Source of the DNA: Eggerthellaceae bacterium
GTDB lineage: Bacteria; Actinomycetota; Coriobacteriia; Coriobacteriales; Eggerthellaceae
Length of the DNA stretch: 16,331 nt
Direction: 5' to 3'
Assembly (NCBI GenBank): GCA_900754955.1
Contig: CAAEEV010000008.1
Location: forward strand, 1-16,331
The position numbers were made by a program, and so were the translations under genes. The notes below the pieces were generated by a model, which saw nothing but the letters and a program-made list of their open reading frames with translations, did not search any database and was not told the DNA's origin. Every line of letters begins with the position of its first letter. The first letter of the stretch is position 1. Of the stretch, positions 5,492 to 15,541 are shown one piece after another.

Positions 5492-6253
5492 TCAGCTCCA
5501 GGCGCGGGCGAAGGTGAGCCCGTAGACCGTCTTTGTGCCGCCGCTTTGCAGCGCTTCCGCCGCGCTATAGAGCGTGGCGCCCGTCGTGCATACGTCGTCC
5601 ACGAGAATCACCGTATCTGGCACTGTCGCCCCTGCAAGCAGAGTCATGCGGCCGCTGAGGTTGGCAAGTCGCTGCGTGCGCGAGAGTTTGCGCTGGTCGC
5701 GGCTGTGCGGGCGTGCGAGCACGGGTGCCACTTCGAGGGCGAGCGCCTCGGCGACGTCGTGCGCGATCTTCTCGGCGTGATCGAACCCGCGCCTCCGGCG
5801 TGCGGCGCTCGTAGCGGGCACGAAGGCCACGGCGGGAGGGCGTCCGTCCTGCGGCGCGGTCCAGCTCGGCGGAACATAGCGTGCCATGACCTGCGCGATG
5901 ACGGCGCTGAGCCGCCGTTCTCCCTGGTCCTTGTAGGCGAGAACGATGCGCCGTGCGCTTCGATCGAGTACGACGGCGCTTGCGAGCGCGGCAAGCGGCA
6001 GCTCGGTGCGGCCACCCGATGCGAGCATGGTGGCATTGCATTCGGTACATTGCACGCGTCCGAACGGGGCGCCGCAACGAGGGCAGGCGCGCCACGTGTC
6101 GATGAACGCGAGGGCGCGGGCGCACGCGTCGCAGATGAGCTCGCCGGGCAGATCGCACACGGCGCAGCGCGTGGGCCAGATCGTCTCGCAGGCCACGTCG
6201 AGGGCGGCTCGTCCGCACGCGGCCGCGACTTCTTTCCAAGATGCTTTCGCCAT
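5492..6253 (-). CDS. comF: ComF/ComFC-family phosphoribosyltransferase-like protein
   Basis: A 253-residue ComF family protein, the cytosolic factor needed for DNA uptake in naturally competent bacteria and widely present in others. The N-terminal part carries a two-part zinc ribbon: C30xxC33 and C41xxC44, then C57xxC60 and C69xxC72. The C-terminal part is a type I phosphoribosyltransferase fold with the PRPP loop VILVDDVCTTGAT (215-227). The segment RRRRGFDHAEKIA (152-164) matches the conserved R-GFNQ-like region of the family. The ATG at 6253 gives the usual length. The frame is open back to 6484, but that part is arginine-rich and looks non-coding. No strong Shine-Dalgarno site precedes 6253, so the exact start is uncertain. 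The gene is convergent with the GT2 gene and lies next to the structured RNA. Confidence 0.9.
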   Translation of the reverse strand: MAKASWKEVAAACGRAALDVACETIWPTRCAVCDLPGELICDACARALAFIDTWRACPRCGAPFGRVQCTECNATMLASGGRTELPLAALASAVVLDRSARRIVLAYKDQGERRLSAVIAQVMARYVPPSWTAPQDGRPPAVAFVPATSAARRRRGFDHAEKIAHDVAEALALEVAPVLARPHSRDQRKLSRTQRLANLSGRMTLLAGATVPDTVILVDDVCTTGATLYSAAEALQSGGTKTVYGLTFARAWS

Positions 6254-6512
6254 GGCCCGAGCGTAGGCGCGTGCTGCCTGCTTTCGTTGGCGGCGGCATG
6301 GTGTCAGCCTTTCGCCGCGCTGCTGCGGAACCGGCGGACATCTGACACAGATCAAGCAGAAGGCGCGCTTCGGTCTGGTGCGGTTCACGCGGTGCGCCGG
6401 CAGCATTCCGGCGTGCAGCAAACGCCGCGTCGATCCTCGGCGCCGCTCGATTCCGTCGCGTACGCATCTGCGTGTGAAGTGCATTCATACGTCGCTGTTC
6501 TGCGCTTTTATC
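6254..6512. other. Untranslated region upstream of comF
   Basis: About 260 bases between the comF start and the RNA promoter. I see no convincing gene. A 7-base inverted repeat GTGTCAG (6301-6307) / CTGACAC (6342-6348) encloses a CGCCG/CGGCG pair, so a comF leader transcript could fold here. On the minus strand TATGAA (complement of 6484-6489) is a possible -10 element for comF, with no good -35. Confidence 0.35.
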
Positions 6513-6521
6513 TGCTACACT
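6513..6521 (+). promoter_or_regulatory. Extended -10 promoter for the structured RNA
   Basis: TGCTACACT at 6513-6521 matches an extended -10 element (TGnTATAAT type) and would start transcription near 6528, only a few bases before the 5' arm of the closing helix of the RNA. No clear -35 box is present, which extended -10 promoters can tolerate. Confidence 0.5.
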
Positions 6522-6527
6522 GAGAAA

Positions 6528-6757
6528 TTGCTTCTTTCGAGTCTGTAGTTGCGGGAGCGTTTGCTCCCTAGTCCATGGCAGATGCGGTCGAAAGGATCCA
6601 CGTAAGCCGCCTCGGCGGTGAGCATGGCGTATCCTAGGGGTAAGTCGTACCGTCCGTTTTCACGCGGCATTCGGCTGCGGCGGGCGAGAGGGTGAAACGC
6701 GCAAGCGGAGCTCCAGTACGCGAGTGTGGGGGCAAAGACTAGGTCAGTCGAAGGAAG
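6528..6757 (+). ncRNA. Structured non-coding RNA, candidate raiA-motif RNA
   Basis: A non-coding stretch with a consistent fold. The ends pair: CTTCTTTCGA (6531-6540) with TCGAAGGAAG (6748-6757), continued by CTG/CAG (6543-6545 with 6745-6747) and TAGT/ACTA (6546-6549 with 6738-6741). Inside are GGGAGC-GTTT-GCTCCC, a long arm (GGTCGA 6586-6591 with TCGTACC 6645-6651, AGGAT/ATCCT, GCCGC-CTCG-GCGGT), a GTTTTCAC/GTGAAAC helix (6656-6663 with 6692-6698), GCGGC/GCTGC, and CGC-GCAA-GCG with a GNRA loop. The raiA-motif RNA of Bacillota and Actinomycetota typically lies between raiA and comFC and has about this size, so the place beside comF suggests that class. raiA itself is not in the window and I cannot match the consensus from memory. 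A 6S RNA or a long cis-acting leader of the lipoprotein gene are alternatives. No T-run ends it before 6807. Confidence 0.55.
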
Positions 6758-6806
6758 CCTCGTATCGGTGCGTTCCGTCGAAGACGGTAGTATGGAGGGT
6801 TTCGTG

Positions 6807-7769
6807 GTGAAGCGATTGCGAGCAGTGGTTGCGGCGTGCGCGCTGGCGGCGTGCATGATGGTGTTCCTGGCGGGTTGCTCCGGCAGCTCGGCCAACCCCC
6901 CGGAGACGAAGGATCCGACGGTTTCGAGTCCCGTCATCGGTGAGGACGGGACGCTGCGCGTAGGCGTCAACACCGACAACTCGCCGCTTGCCGGCATGAG
7001 CACCAACAACGACAAGATCATCGGCGTCGATGTCGACATTGCGGCGGCGATCGCCGACGAGCTCGGCCTCAAGCTGTCGATCGTCGATGTGGGATCCGAC
7101 CCCGAGGGTGCGCTTTCCGATGGCAAGGTCGACATCGTCATGGGCATCGACAGCTCCGATGCATCGTCCGATCTGTGGCTGTCTGACGAGTACCTTCCCA
7201 CTGGCGTTGCTCTGTTCGCGCTCTCGTCCGAGAACACAGGGGTTCCGACGGCTGATTCCGCTCCGTCCGTCGCCGCGCAGATCTCCTCGAAGAGCGCATG
7301 GGCGGTCACCAATAGCTTCGGCGACAGCGCGCTCAAGTCGACGAGCAATCTCGCCGACGGCTTCTCGCAGCTCGAAGCGGGCTCGGTTGATTACGTGGCT
7401 GCCGACGCGATCATCGGACTGTACGCTGCCCGTCACGAGGGTATCGACGCGAGCATCGTGGCGCTCATGGCCGATGCGAGCGGTTACTGCGTGGGCGTGG
7501 CGACCACCAACGCCGATCTTCAGAACACGGTGAACGAGACGCTGCGCACCCTTATCGACAACGGCACGATCAACGTCATCGAGATGAAGTGGCTCGGCCA
7601 GTCGCTCGATCTCTCTGCGTTGCCGAAGATCGAGGCTACGGCAGCAAACGAGGAACCCGCTGCGGAAGAGTCCGCTGATGGTACCGCCGACGACGCGACG
7701 GCCGATACGGTTGCCGCCGCCGAGGCCAACGATGCCGCAGCTGACGCAGAAGGCGAAGAAGCCGCCTAA
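6807..7769 (+). CDS. Solute-binding lipoprotein, amino-acid ABC transporter type
   Basis: A 320-residue extracellular binding protein of family 3 (polar amino acids). Residues 1-24 form a lipoprotein signal peptide (KR, hydrophobic run, LAGC lipobox), with lipidation expected at C24. The fold starts at TLRVGVNTDNSPLAG (49-63), continues with GVDVDIAAAIADELG (73-87) and DGKVDIVMGIDSSDAS (105-120), and ends with the characteristic NGTINVIEMKWLGQS (252-266). Residues 277-320 are an Ala/Glu/Asp-rich tail not usual for the family. GTG at 6807 is preferred because GGAGGG lies seven bases upstream; GTG 6804 and ATG 6792 are alternatives. No permease or ATPase gene is nearby, so the transporter partner must be encoded elsewhere. 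The ligand is unknown. A strong terminator follows. Confidence 0.88.
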   Translation: MKRLRAVVAACALAACMMVFLAGCSGSSANPPETKDPTVSSPVIGEDGTLRVGVNTDNSPLAGMSTNNDKIIGVDVDIAAAIADELGLKLSIVDVGSDPEGALSDGKVDIVMGIDSSDASSDLWLSDEYLPTGVALFALSSENTGVPTADSAPSVAAQISSKSAWAVTNSFGDSALKSTSNLADGFSQLEAGSVDYVAADAIIGLYAARHEGIDASIVALMADASGYCVGVATTNADLQNTVNETLRTLIDNGTINVIEMKWLGQSLDLSALPKIEATAANEEPAAEESADGTADDATADTVAAAEANDAAADAEGEEAA

Positions 7770-7796
7770 GGCGCATTCGAGCAAACATATGCATGG

Positions 7797-7825
7797 GAAG
7801 GGGGTCGCAAGGCCCTCTTCTTTTT
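7797..7825 (+). terminator. Intrinsic terminator of the lipoprotein gene
   Basis: A 10-base stem GAAGGGGGTC (7797-7806) / GGCCCTCTTC (7811-7820), with two G-T pairs, closes a GCAA tetraloop and is followed directly by TTTTT (7821-7825). It sits 28 bases after the stop codon. Confidence 0.9.
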
Positions 7826-7856
7826 GCGCGACGCGGTCTTGCGCGCGCCTGTCTAT

Positions 7857-7950
7857 GTTCGCTCTCGCGCGTTCGTCCGCGTTCGCTCTTGCGTGCGCTC
7901 GTCTCCGCACGTTCTCGCCCACGTTCGCCTGTGTTCGCTTTCGCGTGCGG
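7857..7950. repeat. Degenerate GTTCGC-type short repeats
   Basis: Copies of a GTTCGCTCTCGCGCG-like unit occur at 7857-7871, 7881-7897 (GTTCGCTCTTGCGTGCG) and 7933-7950 (GTTCGCTTTCGCGTGCGG), with shorter GTTC-containing pieces at 7911 and 7923. The stretch is non-coding: translations in all frames are arginine-rich and without recognisable domains. Confidence 0.5.
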
Positions 7951-8357: not shown

Positions 8358-9287
8358 CTAGTTCAGGAAGTCGTCGATGATCTCCTGCTCGGCCTCCTCC
8401 TCGGTGAGACCGAGGGTCATGAGCTTGACGATCTGGTCACCGGCGATCTTGCCGATTGCGGCCTCGTGGATGAGCTGGGCATCCTCGCTTGCGGCCTCGA
8501 TGCCCGGGATCGCCTTCACCTTGGCGTTGCCCATGATGATGGCGTCGCACTGCACGTGGCCGTGGCATTTCGCCTCGCCAATGACGAGCGGGTTGAAGAT
8601 CTGCACCGAGTCATCCTGAGCGACCGAGCGCGAGATCACCTGAACGCTCGCGTCCTCGCCCTTGAGCTCGATCTTCATGTTCGAGGTGGCCTCCTGCTTG
8701 TCGTGCGTCAGTAGCTTCTCGATGAGCACGAGCTTCGCGCCCGCGGCCAGCTCGGCGTTGGTGTCGCGCACCGTGGAGGTCACGCCGCGCAGCTGCACCA
8801 TTTCCATCTCGCAGTAGGAGTTCTCCTCCTGATAGACGTTGGTGGTGGGATTGAGGATGCGCTCGCCGGTGCCTTCGCCCTCGCCGTAGTGCTTCTCAAC
8901 GTACACGACGCGGCTGTTCTTGCCGACATAGAAGCTGTGGATGCCGTCGTGCTCGGACGCCTGGTGGCTCGAGTTGTGGATGCCGCAGCCAGCGACGATC
9001 TTCACGTCGCAGTCCTCGCCGATGTAGAACGTGTTGTACACGACGTCCTTAAGACCCGCCTGCGTGACGATGACGGGAATGTACACCGTCTCGCCCTTGG
9101 TGCCGTCCTTGATGCGGATGTCGATGCCGGGGTGGTCGGTTTTCGTCTCGATGTCGATGAACGCCGAGGAATGGCGTTCGACGAGCTGTCCGTCTTTGCG
9201 GATGTTGAAGGCGCCCTTCGGCATGCCGTGAATGTTGGCGATCTCGGCGAGCAGGTTCTCGTCGATGGGGGAAAGATCAACAGCCAT
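8358..9287 (-). CDS. sufB: SufB/SufD-family Fe-S cluster scaffold protein, short form
   Basis: A 309-residue member of the SufB/SufD family, the beta-helix scaffold on which Fe-S clusters are built together with the ATPase SufC in the cytosol. Recognisable segments are AGCGIHNSSHQASEHDGIHSF (99-119), CHGHVQCDAIIMG (241-253), AIPGIEA and the family hallmark IHEAAIGKI (273-281), and the C-terminal GLTEEEAEQEIIDDFL (293-308) that contacts SufC. It is much shorter than E. coli SufB (about 495 residues) and lacks its N-terminal region. ATG 9287 has AGGAG six bases upstream. It follows sufC by 52 bases. No sufD, sufS, sufU or sufE is present, which fits the two-gene SUF-like minimal system (SmsCB) described for anaerobes. 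SmsB may be the more exact name. Confidence 0.9.
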   Translation of the reverse strand: MAVDLSPIDENLLAEIANIHGMPKGAFNIRKDGQLVERHSSAFIDIETKTDHPGIDIRIKDGTKGETVYIPVIVTQAGLKDVVYNTFYIGEDCDVKIVAGCGIHNSSHQASEHDGIHSFYVGKNSRVVYVEKHYGEGEGTGERILNPTTNVYQEENSYCEMEMVQLRGVTSTVRDTNAELAAGAKLVLIEKLLTHDKQEATSNMKIELKGEDASVQVISRSVAQDDSVQIFNPLVIGEAKCHGHVQCDAIIMGNAKVKAIPGIEAASEDAQLIHEAAIGKIAGDQIVKLMTLGLTEEEAEQEIIDDFLN

Positions 9288-9339
9288 GGTTGACTCCTAT
9301 CTGATGAAGCGCGGTGCCACAGGGGCCGCGCAGAGGGTG

Positions 9340-10110
9340 TTAGCAGGTGGTGGGGATCTCGGTCAGGTGCAGCTCGGTGGGCTCGGAGAGCTGGCAGCCG
9401 GGCACGCCCTTCGACACGAAGCCGAGCTGCGGCATGAGCTCCTCGGGCGTGCCTGTGCGCTCGACGTGGCCGTCGCGCAAAAGCACGATCTCATCGGCGA
9501 GCTGGATGATGCGCTCCTGGTGCGAGATGATCACGATCGAGCGGCCGTCGCGCGCCTCGTGGATGTTGCGGAACGTCTCGGTGAGGCGATCGAAGCTCCA
9601 CAGGTCGATGCCAGCTTCGGGCTCGTCGTAGATGGCGAGCTTCGGGTCGCGCGCGAGGATCGTGGCGATCTCGATGCGCTTCACCTCGCCGCCCGACAGC
9701 GACTTGTCGACCTCGCGGGTGAGGTAAGCTGCCGAGCACAGGCCCACCTTCGCAAGGTACTCGTTGCAGGCGAGCATCGGCAGCTTCTTGCCCGCGGCGA
9801 TGTCGAGGAGCTTCTTCACCTTCATGCCCTTGAAACGCGCGGGCTGCTGAAAGCCGTAGCCGATGCCGAGGTTGGCGCGCTCGGTGATGGCCATGTTGGT
9901 GATATCCTGACCGTCGAAGATGATCTGGCCGCTCGTGGGCTTCTCGATGCCCATGATGAGCTTGGCGAGCGTGGACTTGCCGCCGCCGTTGGGTCCGGTG
10001 ATGACCGTGAAGCGGTCGTCGGGGATGGTGAGCGACAGGTCGTCGATGATGCGCTTGGTGGCGCCGTCTTCGGTCCTCACCTCGAAGACGATGTTCTTCA
10101 GTTCAAGCAT
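9340..10110 (-). CDS. sufC: SufC-type ABC ATPase for Fe-S cluster assembly
   Basis: A 256-residue soluble ABC ATPase that powers conformational change of the SufB-type scaffold. Visible motifs: Walker A GPNGGGKST (39-47), Q-loop region YGFQQPARFKGM (85-96) typical of SufC, signature LSGGEVKR (138-145), Walker B LAIYDEPEAGID (158-169), where most SufC proteins read DEPDSGLD, and the switch histidine in IISHQER (194-200). The last 25 residues (GFVSKGVPGCQ...) extend beyond the ABC core. ATG 10110 has GGAGA seven bases upstream; the frame is open further back but that sequence is repetitive and non-coding. It is the first gene of the sufC-sufB operon, reading away from the divergent PreP gene. 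Confidence 0.93.
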   Translation of the reverse strand: MLELKNIVFEVRTEDGATKRIIDDLSLTIPDDRFTVITGPNGGGKSTLAKLIMGIEKPTSGQIIFDGQDITNMAITERANLGIGYGFQQPARFKGMKVKKLLDIAAGKKLPMLACNEYLAKVGLCSAAYLTREVDKSLSGGEVKRIEIATILARDPKLAIYDEPEAGIDLWSFDRLTETFRNIHEARDGRSIVIISHQERIIQLADEIVLLRDGHVERTGTPEELMPQLGFVSKGVPGCQLSEPTELHLTEIPTTC

Positions 10111-10228
10111 TACGTTCTCCGTCTCTTCGTGCGCCGCATTTCTCGTCTCATGCTGCTGCGGCGCGGCAATTTCACGGGCATATTCTATAGCAAATCGAGG
10201 AGAAGATGCCCCATCAGTGCTCAAGGCG

Positions 10229-10267
10229 AGTATACACAAGTAAAGAGGGAATGAAAGCATAAATGCT
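10229..10267 (-). promoter_or_regulatory. Candidate sufCB promoter and operator
   Basis: In an AT-rich patch unlike its surroundings, the minus strand reads TTTCAT (complement of 10251-10256), a 16-base spacer, and TATACT (complement of 10229-10234). The palindrome AGCAT-AA-ATGCT at 10256-10267 abuts the -35 box and could bind an iron- or redox-responsive repressor. Which regulator, if any, cannot be told from sequence. The sufC leader would be about 110 bases. Confidence 0.45.
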
Positions 10268-10286: not shown

Positions 10287-10402
10287 TGAAAACGGAACGC
10301 AGAAGGTGCGGAAGGGGAACGCGAGGGCGGGGAAGAAGCGAGGAAAGAAGGCGGGGGAGATGTGGGGAAGAAGGCGGAAAAGGTGCAGAAGAGGGGGCGG
10401 GA
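10287..10402 (+). other. Non-coding purine-rich tract
   Basis: About 115 bases in which nearly all residues on the plus strand are A or G, broken mainly by single C residues and a few GTG triplets. The block AGAAGGCGG occurs twice. No gene, hairpin or known motif is visible. It lies between the suf promoter patch and the GC-rich repeat cluster. Confidence 0.6.
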
Positions 10403-10415
10403 CGCGTTGTGCGCA

Positions 10416-10621
10416 GATGCCCAGCGCCGCAGTCGCCCGTCGCGTCCGCGGATGCCCGGTGTCGCGGTCGTCCGCCGCGCGCATGTCTGGTCGAGCTTGA
10501 TCGGTGTAAACGGCGAAAGGGGCGGGTCGCCCCTTTCGCGCATATGCCCGGTGCCGCGGTCGCTTGCTGTGTCCGCGGATGCCCGGCGCCGCAGTCGCTC
10601 ATCGCCCGCGGATGCCACGCG
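10416..10621. repeat. GC-rich repeat cluster upstream of the PreP gene
   Basis: Units of 33-35 bases with consensus GATGCCCGGYGYCGCRGTCG followed by a variable part and GTCCGCG start at 10416, 10451, 10543 and 10578, with a truncated unit at 10611. Two pairs of units are separated by a perfect 11-base inverted repeat, GCGAAAGGGGC (10513-10523) / GCCCCTTTCGC (10529-10539), with a 5-base loop. Copies differ at many positions and are directly adjacent, so this is not a CRISPR array. Function is unknown. Confidence 0.65.
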
Positions 10622-15389: not shown

Positions 15390-15541
15390 CCGTCTGCGCT
15401 CATGCGCAGGCGGAAGGCTGACGCTGCGCGGGATTCCAGCGGCGCAGCTGGCGCTCCAAGCCCTCGTCGCGTACGAAGTGCGCTTCCTCGGGCTTTCACG
15501 CCATCTGAGCTCGCCAGAATCTCGCTCGCCGACGTGGGCTC
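15390..15541 (+). repeat. Fold-back intergenic repeat, copy B
   Basis: The inverted counterpart of 2307-2457, starting seven bases after the preceding stop codon. A first hairpin CCGTCTGCGC (15390-15399) / GCGCAGGCGG (15404-15413) is followed by the long fold-back 15428-15525, whose outer arms are GCGGGATTC/GAATCTCGC and whose apex is GCGTAC/GTGCGC around GAA. The element ends with GCCGACGTGGGCTC. The middle stem reads TGGCG/CGCCA here and TGACG/CGTCA in copy A, a paired change that keeps the helix. Identity to copy A is high over GACGCTGCGCGGGATT and CGCTCCAAGCCC. No T-run follows. Confidence 0.8.

What the first reader, a model, noticed from the sequence alone, without database searches (positions are those of the whole stretch)
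6513..6757. Structured RNA candidate beside comF, possibly a raiA-motif RNA
The sequence shows a gene-free stretch with a closing helix of about 17 pairs joining bases 230 apart, several internal hairpins with GNRA-type loops, and an extended -10 promoter placed to start just before the closing helix. The raiA-motif RNA, an abundant RNA of unclear biochemical role, is known to sit between raiA and comFC in Bacillota and Actinomycetota. Here comF is present, but raiA is absent and a solute-binding lipoprotein gene lies on the other side, so this could be a relocated or divergent member, or a new leader RNA of that gene.
Basis: partly seen in the sequence, partly recalled or inferred. Interest (0 to 1): 0.8.

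Follow-up and report, generated by a model that had tools for sequence, protein, structure and literature searches.

The report
raiA-motif RNA before lipoprotein gene
This stretch encodes a known, intricately folded bacterial RNA (the raiA-motif RNA, also called ModT); in the bacterial family the window appears to come from, it sits directly in front of one gene for a nutrient-binding lipoprotein, which gives a concrete lead on an RNA whose biochemical job is still unknown.

Summary
Window 6532-6756 (+) is a full-length raiA-motif RNA (RF03072, 143.4 bits, cut-off 101.3). In 66 aligned relatives 96.3% of tested pairing cells are standard and 32 of 53 pairs show compensatory changes, three of them in pseudoknot pk-1. 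The odd neighbours are normal for this clade: of 138 genomes in the family of G002 (an Adlercreutzia), 128 show the RNA, and in all 128 the same solute-binding lipoprotein gene (SBP) follows on the same strand, about 24-132 nt away. In the wider class, comF-RNA-SBP-raiA is a frequent order (12 of 30 loci); the window looks like that order with comF inverted and raiA gone. An extended -10 element precedes the RNA; a terminator-like hairpin follows the SBP gene, none was seen between. One genome, G036, keeps promoter and SBP but shows no RNA. Spo0A was found in 0 of 138. Best reading: a ModT-type, probably trans-acting RNA made as the 5' part of an SBP transcript. Association with periplasmic-binding protein genes is in print; I found no report of this strict coupling.

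The parts
6513..6521 (+). extended -10 promoter element TGCTACACT; inferred transcription start about 6528-6531
6532..6756 (+). raiA-motif RNA (RF03072, ModT), full length
   Evidence: 143.4 bits, model 1-209 of 209
6532..6550 (+). P1 5' strand (17 Rfam pairs with 6737-6756)
   Evidence: 16 of the 17 pairs were counted; 11 show double changes, 5 never vary
6737..6756 (+). P1 3' strand
6553..6568 (+). P2 hairpin (absent in L088, L089, L109)
   Evidence: 4 pairs counted, 3 with double changes
6581..6586 (+). pk-1 5' half (P3 loop), pairs with 6628-6633
   Evidence: 6 pairs standard in 66 of 66 sequences, 3 with double changes
6628..6633 (+). pk-1 3' half
6598..6627 (+). P4 (6598-6600 with 6625-6627, my placement) and variable P5 hairpin
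   Evidence: for P4 (nearly invariant, so no covariation); P5 not counted, alignment too poor
6646..6720 (+). P6, P7 and P8 domain; P8 ends in a GCAA loop at 6701-6704
   Evidence: P6 and P7 100% of cells paired, P8 base 97%; one further P8 pair fails in 51 of 66
6757..6803 (+). 47-nt linker without a run of four T, Shine-Dalgarno TGGAGG from 6793; can fold on itself (-15.3 kcal/mol)
6804..7769 (+). solute-binding lipoprotein gene (SBP_bac_3), start GTG 6804 or 6807
   Evidence: PF00497, E 2.2e-17; solved relatives mostly amino-acid binding proteins
7796..7826 (+). terminator-like hairpin followed by TTTTT behind the SBP gene; likely end of the transcription unit
   Evidence: -18.6 kcal/mol; the pattern scan did not list it
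5492..6253 (-). comF gene, divergent from the RNA; likely start ATG at 6253, not 6484 as in the ORF list
   Evidence: zinc ribbon and phosphoribosyltransferase matches, both just below the curated cut-offs

Best explanation
A bona fide raiA-motif (ModT) noncoding RNA of an Eggerthellaceae-type bacterium. SHOWN from sequence: the RNA, most of its fold including pk-1, a recurrent promoter element just before P1, an SBP gene 47 nt downstream that is coupled to the RNA across the family, and a terminator-like hairpin only behind the SBP gene. INFERRED: transcription starts at the foot of P1 and runs into the SBP gene; the compact RNA is released or survives as a stable 5' fragment and acts in trans, as ModT does in clostridia, in a growth-phase adjustment that is unlikely to depend on Spo0A sporulation or, in many members, on c-di-GMP. 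The tight link to the SBP is best explained by the shared promoter. The locus probably derives from comF-RNA-SBP-raiA by inversion of comF and departure of raiA.
For: Rfam match far above cut-off. Covariation: 378 double-change cells against a shuffled mean of 96 and at most 64 when slid. RNA in 128 of 138 family genomes and 284 of 296 sampled class genomes. SBP downstream, same strand, in 128 of 128 genomes with an RNA match. Promoter element in 33 of 36 family loci. G036 keeps comF, TGGTAAAAT and the SBP without an RNA match. comF-RNA-SBP-raiA in 12 of 30 class loci. Spo0A 0 of 138. GGDEF in 91 of 138; of the 20 GGDEF-less genomes that names (27 more are not named), 18 have the RNA, one of them below cut-off. 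Trans action and abundance of ModT in C. difficile: PMC11706538 (abstract, Introduction, passages).
Against: No transcript data for this clade, so abundance, ends, processing and trans action are untested. Nine family genomes show neither RNA nor SBP, and incomplete assembly cannot be told from loss. The shared promoter rests on one genome plus the anatomy. Strict linkage would also fit control in cis, and in the window the Shine-Dalgarno is predicted mostly paired within the linker (unpaired probability 0.24). The pattern scan missed the hairpin behind the SBP gene, so its negative result carries little weight.
Confidence: 0.76

Rival explanations
1. The RNA is a cis-acting leader (riboswitch-like) that controls the solute-binding lipoprotein gene 47 nt downstream.
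For: Linkage in 128 of 128 family genomes with an RNA match, approximate median gap 38 nt, Shine-Dalgarno soon after the RNA. Rfam types the family as cis-reg/riboswitch. Window linker folds at -15.3 kcal/mol and mostly pairs the Shine-Dalgarno; in 37 of 62 loci its predicted unpaired probability is below 0.5 (no shuffled control). In the class group the P1-strand pairing with the Shine-Dalgarno region is a little better than swapped (10 of 200 swaps as low).
Against: No intrinsic terminator candidate in the linkers: 4 of 62 hold a run of four or more T, the window none. Linkers are mostly weakly structured (median -3.9 kcal/mol). The P1-strand pairing does not track partners in the family (own -8.48, swapped mean -8.86) or in all 62 together (129 of 200 swaps as low). 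The same RNA works in trans in clostridia (PMC11706538; PMC11477304) and mostly lies before other genes there.
Confidence: 0.15
2. The RNA and the SBP form one functional pathway in this clade (for example the SBP senses an amino acid and the RNA carries out a growth-phase response), beyond sharing a promoter.
For: Both present in 128, neither in 9, SBP alone in 1 of 138 genomes. Among 12 window proteins scanned with Pfam no permease was recognised; the one ABC ATPase (9343-10245) lies beside a SufBD-type gene and is probably SufC.
Against: Co-presence follows from linkage alone. Clostridial loci mostly lack this neighbour (SBP in 3 of 29). Nothing links the SBP ligand to the RNA.
Confidence: 0.2
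3. Not a functional RNA: a chance structured stretch, decayed copy or idle untranslated leader.
For: Folding energy is ordinary (z -0.93).
Against: Full-length covariance-model match and strong covariation; 73 invariant columns among 66 sequences.
Confidence: 0.01

Closest known systems
raiA-motif RNA / ModT (Rfam RF03072)
   Same: Full-length covariance match; P1-P4, P6-P8 and pk-1 consistent with the description of the cryo-EM structure of the Clostridium acetobutylicum RNA (PMC11751092, section 10 read); next to comF.
   Different: comF is inverted; an SBP gene, not the raiA gene, follows; organism family without detected Spo0A. Rfam's outermost pk-1 pair fails in 52 of 66 sequences; I did not map which pair is the published seventh.
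raiA motif upstream of periplasmic-binding protein genes, as noted in a review (PMC11477304, passages seen)
   Same: Same kind of downstream gene.
   Different: The passage gives no clade and no frequency; here the coupling holds in 128 of 128 family genomes with an RNA match.
ModT of Clostridioides difficile (PMC11706538; abstract, Introduction, passages)
   Same: Same RNA family; its downstream gene is also not raiA.
   Different: Sporulation and c-di-GMP outputs are unlikely to be the common core here. There a longer isoform ends at a terminator just behind the RNA; here the first terminator-like hairpin seen lies behind the SBP gene.

Membership tests
raiA-motif RNA (RF03072) | Score above the curated cut-off over the whole model | tested here: met
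   143.4 bits against 101.3, positions 1-209 of 209
raiA-motif RNA (RF03072) | Secondary structure supported by covariation | tested here: met
   for P1, P2, P6, P7, P8 base; P3b varies on one side only, P4 is nearly invariant, P5 was not counted, one P8 pair fails in 51 of 66
raiA-motif RNA (RF03072) | Pseudoknot pk-1 between P3 loop and the P5-P6 junction | tested here: met
   six pairs in 66 of 66 sequences, three with double changes; Rfam's outermost pair only in 14 of 66
raiA-motif RNA (RF03072) | Pseudoknot pk-2 (two pairs) | not tested
   described in PMC11751092; not mapped here
raiA-motif RNA (RF03072) | comFC next to it (74% in print, not obligatory) | tested here: met
   the window's comF matches both Pfam domains just below cut-off
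raiA-motif RNA (RF03072) | raiA gene downstream (66% in print, not obligatory) | tested here: not met
   window: SBP downstream; S30AE in 0 of 36 family loci within the flanks held, at most 1.5 kb for the 35 relatives, although 134 of 138 genomes have the gene
raiA-motif RNA (RF03072) | Abundant, stable discrete transcript | not testable with these tools
   no RNA-seq reachable
Riboswitch / cis-regulatory leader | Conserved expression platform (terminator or Shine-Dalgarno sequestration) | tested here: inconclusive
   no T-run terminators in most linkers and no partner tracking in the family, but Shine-Dalgarno often predicted paired, window included (no control)
6S RNA | Match to a 6S covariance model | tested here: not met
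   RF03072 was the only match reported

The most novel reading that the evidence does not exclude
In Coriobacteriia the raiA-motif RNA and an orphan amino-acid-type binding lipoprotein form one functional unit: the RNA is made only as the 5' part of the lipoprotein transcript and either controls it or acts with it in nutrient-linked growth-phase control, independent of sporulation and c-di-GMP.
Probability: 0.2. Interest if true: 0.75.

Novelty: new member of a known kind. Interest (0 to 1): 0.42.

Why it matters
[quoted passage not shown] Within one whole bacterial family the neighbourhood is in fact strict: one RNA, one lipoprotein gene, by inference one promoter, no detected Spo0A, often no GGDEF protein. 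That makes this family a clean place to look for the RNA's core role without sporulation, and it names a protein partner to test.

Tried and rejected
Minimum-energy folding as evidence: rejected, z -0.93. 6S RNA: no match. Relocated copy: rejected, RNA plus SBP is the family norm. Riboswitch platform: not supported by the swap test in the family, weak hint in the class group, left inconclusive; I raised the odds of that rival from 0.12 to 0.15 and lowered the main reading from 0.80 to 0.76 for that reason. The terminator scan found nothing in 6400-7900, but it missed the hairpin with TTTTT behind the SBP gene that folds, so I do not lean on it. A raiA gene hidden beside the RNA: not found; comparing the lists by eye, the nearest same-contig pair is about 31 kb apart (G115); many contigs are too short to tell. 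A plasmid search gave one partial Collinsella match (query bases 168-259 of 411, 76.8%), not followed. Paper searches for transcript data in Eggerthella lenta (13 papers hold the terms, 8 listed, none looked relevant from the listing) and for raiA with Coriobacteri (none). A count of the loop-E motif of P8 used a pattern that hit a wrong stretch in at least L085 and missed three rows; its numbers are not used. In one search one family locus was scored SBP 'upstream' by my rule, by position, has the SBP downstream of the RNA in all 36, window included.

Selection: the 35 family loci are five plus the 30 best of 128, and the 30 class loci are the 30 best matches, so the figures lean to well-conserved copies. 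The 128 of 128 figure is over all matches; its gaps are approximate, corrected for where the protein match begins. Searches used stricter filters that lose weak matches; only G036 was re-scanned. The 29 clostridial loci are 26 plus three; the comF profile came from Coriobacteriia and may miss clostridial comF.

Full report
WHAT WAS CHECKED. The window was scanned against all of Rfam. One family matches, RF03072 raiA, at 6532-6756 on the + strand, full length, 143.4 bits against a gathering score of 101.3 (E 4.6e-36 over the window; E 1.1e-37 over 401 bases). By free energy alone the region is unremarkable (z -0.93, 40 of 200 shuffles fold as well).

STRUCTURE. I aligned 66 RNAs: the window, 35 family loci and 30 class loci (A1); 73 columns are invariant. 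I named a structure that combines Rfam helices with P3 and P4 placed by me from the text description of the cryo-EM structure (PMC11751092, section 10 read; figures not seen). Over 53 pairs, 96.3% of cells are standard pairs (shuffled 87.6%; slid by 1-3 columns 27-41%), 32 pairs have changes on both sides (shuffled mean 20.1), and the covariation score is 0.388 (shuffled 0.211, slid at most 0.117), reached by 0 of 500 shuffles. Six pk-1 pairs hold in all 66 sequences, three with double changes; the outermost pair drawn by Rfam fails in 52 of 66, the window included. One P8 pair fails in 51 of 66. P5 was not counted and pk-2 was not tested. Caveat: the shuffles ignore relatedness; the slid controls keep it, but favour a structure derived from such sequences.

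TRANSCRIPTION SIGNALS. TGCTACACT lies at 6513-6521. TGNTANANT occurs within 45 nt upstream in 33 of 36 family loci (32 of them 8-11 nt before the RNA) and 22 of 30 class loci (21 of them 8-10 nt before it), against 18 of 11,667 random 45-nt windows. A sigma-70 scan that needs a -35 box found nothing. For terminators, the scan listed none in 6400-7900, but folding shows a strong hairpin followed by TTTTT at about 7796-7826, behind the SBP gene, so that scan is not reliable here. In the 62 of 66 loci where a start codon could be assigned, four RNA-to-SBP linkers contain a run of four or more T; the window's does not. Taken together, RNA and SBP look like one transcription unit (inference).

NEIGHBOURHOOD. 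comF (5492-6253, -) points away from the RNA. An SBP_bac_3 lipoprotein gene (6804-7769, +; PF00497 E 2.2e-17) follows; its solved relatives are mostly amino-acid binding proteins. Of the ten comF loci most like the window's (L001-L010), nine have the RNA in the fetched DNA, on the strand opposite to comF; L001's genome has it elsewhere, on what is by its length the same contig. In the family of G002 (the genome of L002, Adlercreutzia sp. ZJ473), 128 of 138 genomes have an RNA match, 126 over the cut-off, and 129 of 138 have the SBP at E 1e-20 or better. All 128 have the SBP downstream on the same strand, approximate gap 24-132 nt, median 38, 124 within 100 nt. Nine genomes show neither. G036 shows the SBP only: in 3.5 kb around it Rfam finds nothing at E up to 0.1, yet the comF end, an extended -10 (TGGTAAAAT) and the SBP are there, with 191 nt between comF stop and SBP start. 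I read this as a natural loss of the RNA that spared the promoter. Within 1.5 kb of the RNA, comF was found in 29 of 35 family loci and the SBP in 35 of 35.

WHERE THE raiA GENE WENT. S30AE (the raiA/hpf gene) is in 134 of 138 family genomes, but in 0 of 36 family loci within the flanks held. In 30 class loci, comF was found in 30 (29 on the RNA's strand), the SBP family in 28 and S30AE in 14: in 12 behind the SBP and in two (L142, L146) directly behind the RNA without an SBP. Twelve other class loci have a second SBP-type hit. In 29 clostridial loci the same profiles find comF in 12, S30AE in 17 (one on the opposite strand) and SBP in 3. The simplest history (inference, no tree built) is comF-RNA-raiA, gain of an SBP between RNA and raiA in Coriobacteriia, then departure of raiA and inversion of comF in the window's family.

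WHAT IT DOES. In C. difficile the RNA's abundance rivals that of rRNA; it acts in trans and affects entry to stationary phase, sporulation and c-di-GMP (PMC11706538: abstract, Introduction and passages). Its authors already note many non-spore-forming hosts and infer a more basic role. Here Spo0A was found in 0 of 138 family genomes (control: found in B. subtilis). GGDEF proteins were found in 91 of 138; of the 20 GGDEF-less genomes named there (27 more are not named), 18 have the RNA. So sporulation and c-di-GMP are unlikely to be the common core, with the caveat of incomplete genomes. A cis role on the SBP was examined in three ways. Terminators: none likely in most linkers. Pairing of the P1 5' strand with the Shine-Dalgarno region: no tracking in the family (own -8.48, swapped -8.86), a weak hint in the class group (10 of 200 swaps as low), none overall (129 of 200). 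Shine-Dalgarno access: unpaired probability 0.24 in the window, median 0.44, below 0.5 in 37 of 62, without a control. I therefore favour a trans-acting RNA co-transcribed with the SBP and leave the cis role open; processing and trans action are inferred.

KNOWN OR NEW. The RNA class, fold, comF neighbourhood and an association with periplasmic-binding protein genes are in print (PMC11477304, passages; PMC11751092, section 10 and passages; PMC11706538; PMC12286853, passages). The original reports (Soares 2024; Weinberg 2017, DOI recalled) are not held and I did not see them. One search lists five papers with 'raiA motif', of which I opened four; searches list none and one. None of what I saw describes the strict SBP coupling in Coriobacteriia, but the unseen papers or supplements may. 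Verdict: a new member of a known kind, with an unusually clean clade-wide gene coupling.

Noticed in passing
2372-2429 and 15420-15477: A 58-nt inverted repeat, 86% complementary, arms 13 kb apart in apparently intergenic stretches; it may be a dispersed repeat of this genome.
   Followed up: no
10388-10609: Two 95-nt direct copies, 71% alike, 127 nt apart, probably just upstream of the M16C/PreP-type peptidase gene.
   Followed up: no
L156 (G036:C97:5500-9000): A relative that has comF, the promoter element and the SBP but no raiA-motif RNA match: a natural RNA loss useful for tests.
   Followed up: partly
L142, L146: Class members in which the raiA (S30AE) gene directly follows the RNA and the SBP is missing, beside 12 class loci with an SBP between RNA and raiA.
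   Followed up: partly
L126, L130, L135, L138-L140, L148-L153: Twelve class loci with a second SBP-type hit downstream of the RNA.
   Followed up: no
L088, L089, L109: RNAs without the P2 hairpin, with no TGNTANANT match upstream and no comF detected within 1.5 kb: perhaps a distinct subgroup.
   Followed up: no
7796-7826: Strong terminator-like hairpin with TTTTT behind the SBP gene that the pattern scan did not list.
   Followed up: partly
8358-10245: SufBD-type gene and an ABC ATPase (probably SufC) on the - strand behind the SBP gene.
   Followed up: no
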